Source: a virus. Taken from it: DNA of 64,000 nucleotides. A model generated the notes under the pieces. It was not told where the DNA came from. It saw nothing but the letters and a program-made list of their open reading frames with translations, and did not search any database. Numbering within the stretch: position 1 is the stretch's first letter; every line of letters begins with the position of its first letter. The position numbers and the translations under genes were made by a program. The stretch spans positions 1 through 64,000 of IMG/VR virus record IMGVR_UViG_3300036766_001014. One strand, given 5' to 3'. This document shows positions 46-29,635 of the stretch, one piece after another.

Positions 46-172
46 GTCCGCGATTGCGCTCGCGGAAGTCCAGGCATTCTGACGTCGCCTAGCTAGCGAC
101 GGAACAGGATGGCCTTCGACCAGCTAGGGTGAGCTGCGAATCAGGCGACGCGCTGTCGTCTGGTACCCACCG
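46..172. other. Spacer in tRNA array, no gene supported
   Basis: This spacer contains two strong hairpins: TCCGCG pairing with CGCGGA, and CGTCGC pairing with GCGACG around a CTAGCTA loop. The second resembles an anticodon arm, but no acceptor stem or T arm fits around it. A degenerate tRNA is possible but is not supported. Confidence 0.3.
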
Positions 173-244
173 GCCACCGACCGAGGGTCGGACGCGCCTC
201 TCATAAGGGCGTCGGAGACGTTTCGAGTACGTCCGGTGGCACCA
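173..244 (+). tRNA. tRNA with CAT anticodon (Met or Ile2), short D arm
   Basis: The acceptor stem GCCACCG/CGGTGGC is perfect, the T arm is GACGT-TTCGAGT-ACGTC, and discriminator A plus CCA are encoded. The anticodon arm is CGCCT-CTCATAA-GGGCG, giving anticodon CAT. Only 15 nt separate the acceptor and anticodon stems (18-22 is normal), leaving a D stem CCGA/TCGG with a 3-nt loop and no normal GG. Methionine or lysidine-modified isoleucine cannot be told apart here. Confidence 0.7.
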
Positions 245-245
245 C

Positions 246-320
246 GCGGCGGCCTCTGGGAAGGGCGCGGCCCTTACAAGGCTGCGCAGGCGGGTTCGAT
301 TCCCGCACGCCGTACCATCT
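246..320 (+). tRNA. tRNA-Val(TAC)
   Basis: The T arm GCGGG-TTCGATT-CCCGC and anticodon arm CGGCC-CTTACAA-GGCTG give anticodon TAC for valine. The acceptor pairs as GCGGCG with CGCCGT, with a G:A mismatch at pair 7, and CCA is encoded after discriminator A. As in the preceding tRNA, the stretch between acceptor and anticodon stems is only 15 nt, so the D arm is reduced. It begins two bases after the preceding CCA. Confidence 0.7.
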
Positions 321-587: not shown

Positions 588-661
588 GGGGTTGTGGTCC
601 AATAGGCAGAGGCGGCCGACTTAAAATCAGCATGTTGCGGGTTCGAGTCCCGCCTTCCCCA
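588..661 (+). tRNA. tRNA-Leu(TAA), class I shape
   Basis: The anticodon arm GCCGA-CTTAAAA-TCAGC gives TAA, reading the rare leucine codon UUA. The D arm is normal, with a GG in its loop. The T arm is GCGGG-TTCGAGT-CCCGC, the discriminator is A and CCA is not encoded. The acceptor has two T:T mismatches and the anticodon stem one C:A mismatch. The variable loop is only 5 nt, although bacterial leucine tRNAs normally have a long variable arm. Confidence 0.65.
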
Positions 662-663
662 CA

Positions 664-818
664 AAGATGATGGCGGCGCAGCGAAGCGCGGGAATAGGCC
701 GCTAGCGAGCTGAATACCGACCGAGGCTGCGGAGCAGACGTGCTTGTCGCGAGGGCAGTGGCCGTTCGACTCGGCGCCGCGACCTATGCTGGCGCAAGCC
801 CAGCCCATCAGTTGTTTT
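664..818. other. Spacer in tRNA array, no gene supported
   Basis: A T-loop-like GCCG-TTCGACT-CGGC motif and a GTCGCG/CGCGAC inverted repeat occur near its right end, but no anticodon arm or acceptor fits them. Open frames here are shadows of the tRNA genes. Confidence 0.3.
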
Positions 819-894
819 GCTGTGCTAGCCCAACGGCAGGAGGCGCCTCGCTCAAAACGAGGACAGTCTGGGTTCGAGTCCCAGGCACAGCACC
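819..894 (+). tRNA. tRNA-Leu(CAA), class I shape
   Basis: All helices are well formed: acceptor GCTGTGC/GCACAGC, D stem GCC/GGC, anticodon arm CCTCG-CTCAAAA-CGAGG and T arm CTGGG-TTCGAGT-CCCAG. Discriminator A is followed by CC. The anticodon CAA reads UUG. The variable loop is 5 nt (ACAGT), so this is another leucine-anticodon tRNA without the long class II arm. Confidence 0.85.
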
Positions 895-896
895 GC

Positions 897-973
897 GGAC
901 GTGTTGCTCAATTGGCAGAAGCAATGGACTAAGGATCCATCCGGTGCGAGTTCGACTCTCGCCACGTCCACCA
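897..973 (+). tRNA. tRNA-Leu(AAG), class I shape
   Basis: The acceptor GGACGTG/CACGTCC is perfect, followed by encoded CCA. The D arm has a GG-containing loop, the anticodon arm is ATGGA-CTAAGGA-TCCAT and the T arm is GCGAG-TTCGACT-CTCGC. The anticodon AAG would read CUU. The variable loop is 5 nt. It starts two bases after the preceding tRNA, as in a processed polycistronic precursor. Confidence 0.85.
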
Positions 974-974
974 T

Positions 975-1050
975 GCCAGGGTCGCTCAACGGAAGAAGCA
1001 GCTGGTTCAGAACCAGTTCAGTGCGAGTTCGAGTCTCGCTCCTGGTACCA
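975..1050 (+). tRNA. tRNA-Leu(CAG), class I shape
   Basis: The acceptor GCCAGGG pairs with TCCTGGT with G:U at both ends, and CCA is encoded. The anticodon arm GCTGG-TTCAGAA-CCAGT gives CAG, reading CUG. The T arm is GCGAG-TTCGAGT-CTCGC and the variable loop is 5 nt (TCAGT). This is the fourth leucine-anticodon tRNA in a row and the last of the array, 47 bases before the HNH gene. Confidence 0.85.
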
Positions 1051-29383: not shown

Positions 29384-29393
29384 AAGAAACGGG

Positions 29394-29466
29394 CGCGGTC
29401 GGGCGGAGTTGAACCGCCGCTTGCTGGATCATTACTCCAGCCGTGCTGCCATAACACTTCGACCAC
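29394..29466 (-). tRNA. tRNA-Ile(AAT)-like
   Basis: Acceptor GTGGTCG/CGACCGC, D stem GTGT/GCAC with a GG-bearing loop, anticodon arm CTGGA-GTAATGA-TCCAG (anticodon AAT) and T arm GGCGG-TTCAACT-CCGCC. Discriminator is G and CCA is not encoded. As in the tRNA at 29220, two bases follow the D stem. It is the first of three tandem minus-strand tRNA genes. Confidence 0.6.
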
Positions 29467-29635
29467 AAACGGTAAGCGGACCACGCTGGGCCTTGCGGCG
29501 CGGGGTCTTTGGCGGGCGCCTTCCCGGCGCAACGGTCAATGGCTTACGAGCATGAGCCACATAGTAAGCAGCCCTGGCAAGTCGTCAAGGGCTGCCGCCA
29601 GGCACACATTTGAGCACGTGGTGGACAGGGCCAGC
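29467..29635. other. Gap between tRNA genes and divergent + strand promoter
   Basis: No coding region or clear RNA is seen. It must hold the promoter for the minus-strand tRNA/Pth2 transcript, but no TTGACA-type element is evident on that strand. Confidence 0.3.

What the first reader, a model, noticed from the sequence alone, without database searches (positions are those of the whole stretch)
588..1050. Four leucine-anticodon tRNAs without a long variable arm
tRNAs with anticodons TAA, CAA, AAG and CAG all have 5-nt variable loops. Bacterial leucine tRNAs are class II with a long arm. Either the phage has class I leucine tRNAs accepted by host LeuRS through A73, or these tRNAs are charged with something else.
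Basis: partly seen in the sequence, partly recalled or inferred. Interest (0 to 1): 0.66.

Follow-up and report, generated by a model that had tools for sequence, protein, structure and literature searches.

The report
Leucine tRNAs lacking the long arm
This phage carries four leucine tRNAs without the extra arm that textbook bacterial leucine tRNAs have, but they keep the marks by which the leucine enzyme knows its tRNA, and the same short form is common in other phages and is the only UUA-reading tRNA found in several actinobacteria.

Summary
ARAGORN and Rfam find four tRNAs at 588-661, 819-892, 897-973 and 975-1050 with anticodons UAA, CAA, AAG and CAG, each with a 5-nt variable loop.

The premise that bacterial tRNA-Leu is always class II is wrong. 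In a sample of viral tRNAs not selected on leucine, 48 of 136 Leu-anticodon tRNAs are short-armed, against 1 of 105 Ser and 1 of 48 Tyr. Actinomycetota chromosomes carry the same form. In five such genomes it is the only Leu(UAA) tRNA found, so it should carry leucine there.

All four window tRNAs keep A73, A15-U48, G18G19 and A20a, the published E. coli LeuRS identity set. The A73/A15-U48/A20a triple occurs in 41/48 short Leu and 79/85 long Leu tRNAs but in 7/1113 other class I tRNAs.

Best explanation: genuine class I leucine tRNAs charged by host LeuRS. Charging with another amino acid is unsupported. The kind is under-described rather than new: a 2023 review says bacterial tRNA-Leu always has the arm; one paper noted a short-looped tRNA-Leu in a phage-like cluster. 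Why the arm is absent is open; evasion of arm-cutting nucleases is an untested idea.

The parts
588..661 (+). class I tRNA-Leu(UAA); variable loop AUGUU; A73; CCA not encoded (CAA follows); U-U mismatches 5:68 and 6:67, C-A mismatch 29:41
   Evidence: ARAGORN; Rfam 47.1 bits; identity bases
819..892 (+). class I tRNA-Leu(CAA); variable loop ACAGU; A73; followed by CCG, so no full CCA
   Evidence: ARAGORN; Rfam 54.3 bits
897..973 (+). class I tRNA-Leu(AAG); variable loop CCGGU; A73; encoded CCA; A at wobble position 34
   Evidence: ARAGORN; Rfam 53.9 bits
975..1050 (+). class I tRNA-Leu(CAG); variable loop UCAGU; A73; encoded CCA
   Evidence: ARAGORN; Rfam 48.3 bits
1..43 (+). probable 3' part of a further tRNA cut by the end of the record
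   Evidence: Rfam partial match 20.7 bits (below cut-off)
167..244 (+). probable tRNA with CAU anticodon, missed at default settings; acceptor GCCACCG/CGGTGGC then ACCA
   Evidence: ARAGORN at 95% threshold; sequence
241..317 (+). weak tRNA-Val(UAC)
   Evidence: ARAGORN; Rfam 31.1 bits
1098..1715 (+). HNH endonuclease gene next to the array; its viral relatives also sit in or beside tRNA arrays
   Evidence: PHROG 16726 E=4.8e-33; relatives

Best explanation
These are genuine leucine tRNAs of a short-armed (class I) type that is widespread in phages and also native to many Actinomycetota. Host leucyl-tRNA synthetase charges them with leucine, reading A73, the A15-U48 pair and the G18G19/A20a arrangement of the D loop, none of which needs the long arm. 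Together the four anticodons can serve all six leucine codons (UAA: UUA/UUG; CAA: UUG; CAG: CUG; AAG: CUU, and CUC/CUA if A34 is read broadly), so the phage brings a self-standing leucine decoding set. Shown: structure, anticodons, identity bases, occurrence elsewhere, and a short-armed tRNA as the only Leu(UAA) found in five actinobacterial genomes. Inferred: charging in this phage's host, which is unknown, and the benefit to the phage.
For: All four have A14, A15-U48, G18G19, A20a, A22 and A73; the window's own Phe and Ile tRNAs lack the triple. The triple A15-U48 + A20a + A73 is found in 41/48 short Leu and 79/85 long Leu viral tRNAs, but in 7/1113 other class I, 1/104 Ser and 1/47 Tyr. Published E. 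coli work, as reviewed in PMC9976931: A73, A15-U48, G18G19 and A20a are needed, and variants missing the anticodon arm and long arm stay active. Short-armed Leu(UAA) is the only Leu(UAA) found in the complete chromosomes of Mycolicibacter sp. MYC123 and Mycolicibacterium sediminis, in strain IMCC26103 (two copies), and in Kutzneria sp. 744 and Nocardia mikamii. Named phages with tRNA-Leu of this form include the T5-like STG2, Felix O1-like mistaenkt and Moogle, KVP40-like V09, cyanophages P-RSM6 and S-CRM01, Myxococcus Mx1 and phages of Streptomyces, Gordonia and Mycobacterium. Ser and Tyr tRNAs in the same arrays keep long arms, as expected if SerRS and bacterial TyrRS need the arm and LeuRS does not. 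No synthetase of the LeuRS family (PF00133) is in the virus record, so the host enzyme would have to charge them.
Against: No charging data exist for these tRNAs and the host is unknown. The identity rules are from E. coli; archaeal LeuRS reads the arm (PMC9976931). The UAA tRNA has mismatches in two stems and may be decaying. UUA is almost unused in the phage's own genes (2 of 340 leucine codons), so codon supply alone does not explain the full set.
Confidence: 0.87

Rival explanations
1. The tRNAs carry leucine anticodons but are charged with another amino acid, recoding leucine codons in phage genes.
For: A class I body is expected for most other amino acids; A35 is shared with Val and Phe anticodons. 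[quoted passage not shown]
Against: The leucine triple is present in all four and occurs in fewer than 1% of other class I viral tRNAs; no G3:U70 for Ala (pairs 3:70 are G-C, U-A, A-U, C-G; acceptor strands) and no G73 for Ser. Helicase and recombinase genes of the phage match their families under the standard code. Nearest relatives are nearly all short-armed Leu tRNAs of phages and bacteria.
Confidence: 0.03
2. Some or all are decaying gene copies or decoys that are not used in translation.
For: The UAA copy has two U-U acceptor mismatches, a C-A in the anticodon stem and no encoded CCA; UUA is nearly absent from phage genes; neighbouring tRNAs at 1-590 are weak.
Against: CAA, AAG and CAG copies have fully paired acceptor stems and scores of 48-54 bits; the identity bases are intact in all four.
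Confidence: 0.08
3. About origin rather than function: the arm was lost many separate times by chance in phage genomes under pressure for small size, because LeuRS tolerates it.
For: LeuRS tolerates arm loss (PMC9976931); Leu but not Ser or Tyr tRNAs are short; the tree needs 19 changes between short and long.
Against: With arm and anticodon left out, 98 of 111 short-armed Leu tRNAs fall on one side of a single branch with 11 long ones (support 96), and 19 changes compare with a shuffled mean of 76: mostly shared ancestry rather than many fresh losses. Without the D arm the signal weakens to 38 changes.
Confidence: 0.25

Closest known systems
Canonical bacterial class II tRNA-Leu
   Same: Leucine anticodons, A73, A15-U48, G18G19, A20a, 3-bp D stem with mismatched 13:22
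   Different: 5-nt variable loop in place of an arm of about 11-17 nt
Short-armed tRNA-Leu(UAA)/(CAA) of Actinomycetota chromosomes
   Same: 5-nt variable loop ending in U48, same D-arm layout, A73; sole Leu(UAA) found in five genomes
   Different: The nearest cellular copies differ from the window copies at 13-19 of 66 compared positions; the window also has AAG and CAG anticodons
tRNA-Leu(TAG) with short variable loop in the phage-like 32-tRNA cluster of a mycobacterium (PMC6582537)
   Same: Short variable loop, tRNA array with an HNH endonuclease, likely phage origin
   Different: One anticodon, noted in passing; no identity analysis
Animal mitochondrial tRNA-Leu(UUR)
   Same: Leucine tRNA without the long arm, charged by LeuRS through A73 and A14 (PMC9976931)
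   Different: Organelle, its own LeuRS, otherwise degenerate body

Membership tests
tRNA (Rfam RF00005) | Cloverleaf scoring above the curated cut-off | tested here: met
   47.1, 54.3, 53.9, 48.3 bits against 29
Leucine tRNA by identity (E. coli LeuRS set) | A73 | tested here: met
   All four
Leucine tRNA by identity (E. coli LeuRS set) | A15-U48 trans-Levitt pair | tested here: met
   All four
Leucine tRNA by identity (E. coli LeuRS set) | G18G19 with A20a in the D loop | tested here: met
   All four; 7 of 1113 other class I tRNAs carry the A15-U48/A20a/A73 triple
Leucine tRNA by identity (E. coli LeuRS set) | Charged with leucine by LeuRS | not testable with these tools
   Needs a charging assay
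Class II tRNA-Leu | Long variable arm | tested here: not met
   5-nt variable loops
Short-armed tRNA-Leu of phages and Actinomycetota | Leu anticodon, variable loop of 4-6 nt ending in U48, leucine identity triple | tested here: met
   the four tRNAs fall with this group in the tree
tRNA-Ala | G3:U70 pair | tested here: not met
   Pairs 3:70 are G-C, U-A, A-U, C-G (acceptor strands)
tRNA-Ser | G73 and long arm | tested here: not met
   A73 and 5-nt loop

The most novel reading that the evidence does not exclude
The short-armed tRNA-Leu set is an anti-defence device: host nucleases or toxins that grip or cut the long arm of class II tRNAs cannot disable it, so the phage keeps all six leucine codons readable when host tRNA-Leu is destroyed. 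[quoted passage not shown] the near absence of UUA from the phage's genes beside a full leucine set fits replacement rather than codon supply.
Probability: 0.12. Interest if true: 0.72.

Novelty: new member of a known kind. Interest (0 to 1): 0.45.

Why it matters
A 2023 review states that tRNA-Leu keeps a long arm everywhere but in animal mitochondria (PMC9976931). The counts here contradict that for phages and Actinomycetota, which matters for tRNA annotation (isotype models may flag such tRNAs), for LeuRS recognition rules, and for tools that treat bacterial tRNA-Leu as class II. It also gives a natural experiment: leucine tRNAs are free to lack the arm, serine and tyrosine tRNAs are not.

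Tried and rejected
Recoding of leucine codons: rejected on identity bases and lack of Ala/Ser marks. UUA codon supply as the reason for the array: not supported, UUA is 0.6% of leucine codons in seven homology-supported genes. Phage-borne LeuRS: no PF00133 match in the record. Phage-borne deaminase for A34: one family tested (PF14437), no match; other deaminase families not tested. Near relatives to check conservation of the array: the only close one is a 41-kb fragment without tRNAs. Megablast of the first 12 kb against phages found nothing. Host: not identified; the helicases are at most 36% identical to those of phages of many hosts. The first numbering of D arms miscounted some tRNAs, such as the window's Phe; it was redone with pairing-based numbering and the conclusions did not change. 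Single-sequence folding does not give a full cloverleaf for all four, as is common for unmodified tRNA; not counted for or against.

Full report
What is there. The first 1.1 kb of the window is a tRNA array at the very start of an 80,840-base IMG/VR virus record. ARAGORN finds Leu(TAA) 588-662, Leu(CAA) 819-894, Leu(AAG) 897-973 and Leu(CAG) 975-1050, after a weak Val(TAC) at 241-317. Rfam's tRNA model scores the four Leu genes at 47.1 to 54.3 bits against a cut-off of 29, with no arm inserted between anticodon and T stem. Variable regions are five bases long. A relaxed run adds a tRNA with a CAU anticodon at 167-240, and bases 1-43 look like the 3' end of one more tRNA, so the array probably runs on beyond the record. 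An HNH endonuclease follows at 1098-1715; 17 of its 19 viral relatives lie in stretches with at least three tRNAs, several with 20 to 39.

Identity bases. The 2023 review of tRNA identity (PMC9976931, read) says that E. coli LeuRS needs A73, the A15-U48 pair, G18G19 and A20a, that the sequence and folding of the long arm do not matter, and that variants without the anticodon arm and long arm remain active. All four window tRNAs have every one of these bases, and also A14 and A22, with the mismatched 13:22 of leucine tRNAs; the window's own Phe and Ile tRNAs do not have the triple.

Is that more than chance? I scanned viral contigs with patterns for ordinary non-leucine D arms, ran ARAGORN on all loci, removed the tRNAs that carried the scan pattern and duplicates, and kept 1,483 tRNAs from 235 loci. 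Leucine anticodons: 48 short, 85 long, 3 between. Serine: 1 short, 104 long. Tyrosine: 1 short, 47 long (Fisher p = 2e-16 for Leu against Ser+Tyr). The triple A15-U48 + A20a + A73 is in 41/48 short Leu, 79/85 long Leu, 1/104 Ser, 1/47 Tyr and 7/1113 other class I tRNAs. Short-armed leucine tRNAs therefore keep the leucine signature, and only leucine among the class II isotypes is free to lack the arm. Rows are dereplicated but related, so the p-value overstates independence; the contrast itself is large.

Named phages. BLAST hits of the array in annotated phages are mostly labelled tRNA-Leu. Fetched examples with short variable loops and the triple: STG2 (T5-like), V09 (KVP40-like), P-RSM6 and S-CRM01 (cyanophages), Mx1, mistaenkt and Moogle (Felix O1-like, loops of 5 to 7), Genie2, Sixama and Douge. 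These ten were picked because they resembled the window, so they show breadth and not frequency. Where their arrays also hold Ser or Tyr tRNAs, those are long-armed.

Cells. In a spread of 296 Actinomycetota species 32 carry it. In five genomes, including two complete mycobacterial chromosomes, a pattern that would match long or short Leu(UAA) tRNAs found only the short form (tRNAs read). A sole UUA reader in a cell with the standard code has to carry leucine. This is the strongest argument that such a tRNA is a leucine acceptor. The search relies on TTAAAA and GTTCGANYC being present; a Leu(UAA) tRNA with an odd T loop would be missed.

Ancestry. Over 63 columns with arm and anticodon left out, one branch (support 96) parts 98 of 111 short-armed Leu tRNAs, with 11 long ones, from the rest; 19 changes of class against a shuffled mean of 76. 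Nearest neighbours outside the same contig share the class for 59 of 67 short and 79 of 89 long. The window tRNAs fall in the short-armed group. So the short form looks mostly like one old type shared between phages and bacteria rather than repeated fresh loss; part of that signal sits in the D arm (38 changes without it), and 63 columns cannot resolve details.

Function. The four anticodons can serve all six leucine codons if A34 in AAG is read broadly. In seven homology-supported genes the phage uses CUG 40%, CUC 34%, UUG 12%, CUU 8%, CUA 4%, UUA 0.6%, so the UAA tRNA is not there for a UUA-rich phage. A full set fits replacement of host leucine tRNAs lost during infection. Defence nucleases that cut variable loops of class II tRNAs are known (Septu and retron-Eco7 on tRNA-Tyr; T5 tRNA-Tyr escapes by its variable loop, PMC13096335). 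That a missing arm protects leucine tRNAs is my inference and untested.

Known or new. I found no paper in the held library that describes short-armed bacterial or phage tRNA-Leu as a family; the library lacks most subscription papers, including older T5 work. PMC6582537 notes one short-looped tRNA-Leu(TAG) in a phage-like cluster; PMC11541572 names only tRNA-Leu-2, 3 and 5 of M. tuberculosis as long-looped, which suggests without stating it that the others are short; PMC9976931 states the opposite of what is counted here. The window's genes are new members of a kind that is in databases but hardly described.

Noticed in passing
29391-29467 (- strand): tRNA-Ile with anticodon AAU (A34), rare in bacteria, and G at position 73; with Leu(AAG) the phage has two tRNAs that start their anticodon with A.
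   Followed up: no
1-590: Several weak or unusual tRNA-like genes (CAU at 167-240, Val(UAC) 241-317, a possible CAU tRNA at about 331-410) that default settings miss or score low.
   Followed up: partly
1098-1715: HNH endonuclease family whose relatives in large phages lie inside tRNA arrays (L377-L395), suggesting an array-associated homing endonuclease.
   Followed up: partly
588-661: U-U mismatches at 5:68 and 6:67 and a C-A at 29:41 in the Leu(UAA) gene: early decay or repair after transcription.
   Followed up: no
L642-L647 (five Actinomycetota genomes): Short-armed tRNA-Leu(UAA) is the only Leu(UAA) tRNA found in these genomes; IMCC26103 has two copies.
   Followed up: yes
L578, L548, L529, L550, L526, L525, L630: Short-armed tRNA-Leu in contigs labelled Acidobacteria, Rokubacteria, Deltaproteobacteria, Planctomycetes and Cyanobacteria; not checked whether chromosomal or from phages.
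   Followed up: no
L241:10033-10100, L350:2948-3021: The single short Ser and short Tyr calls in the sample; the Ser one looks like a poor prediction.
   Followed up: no
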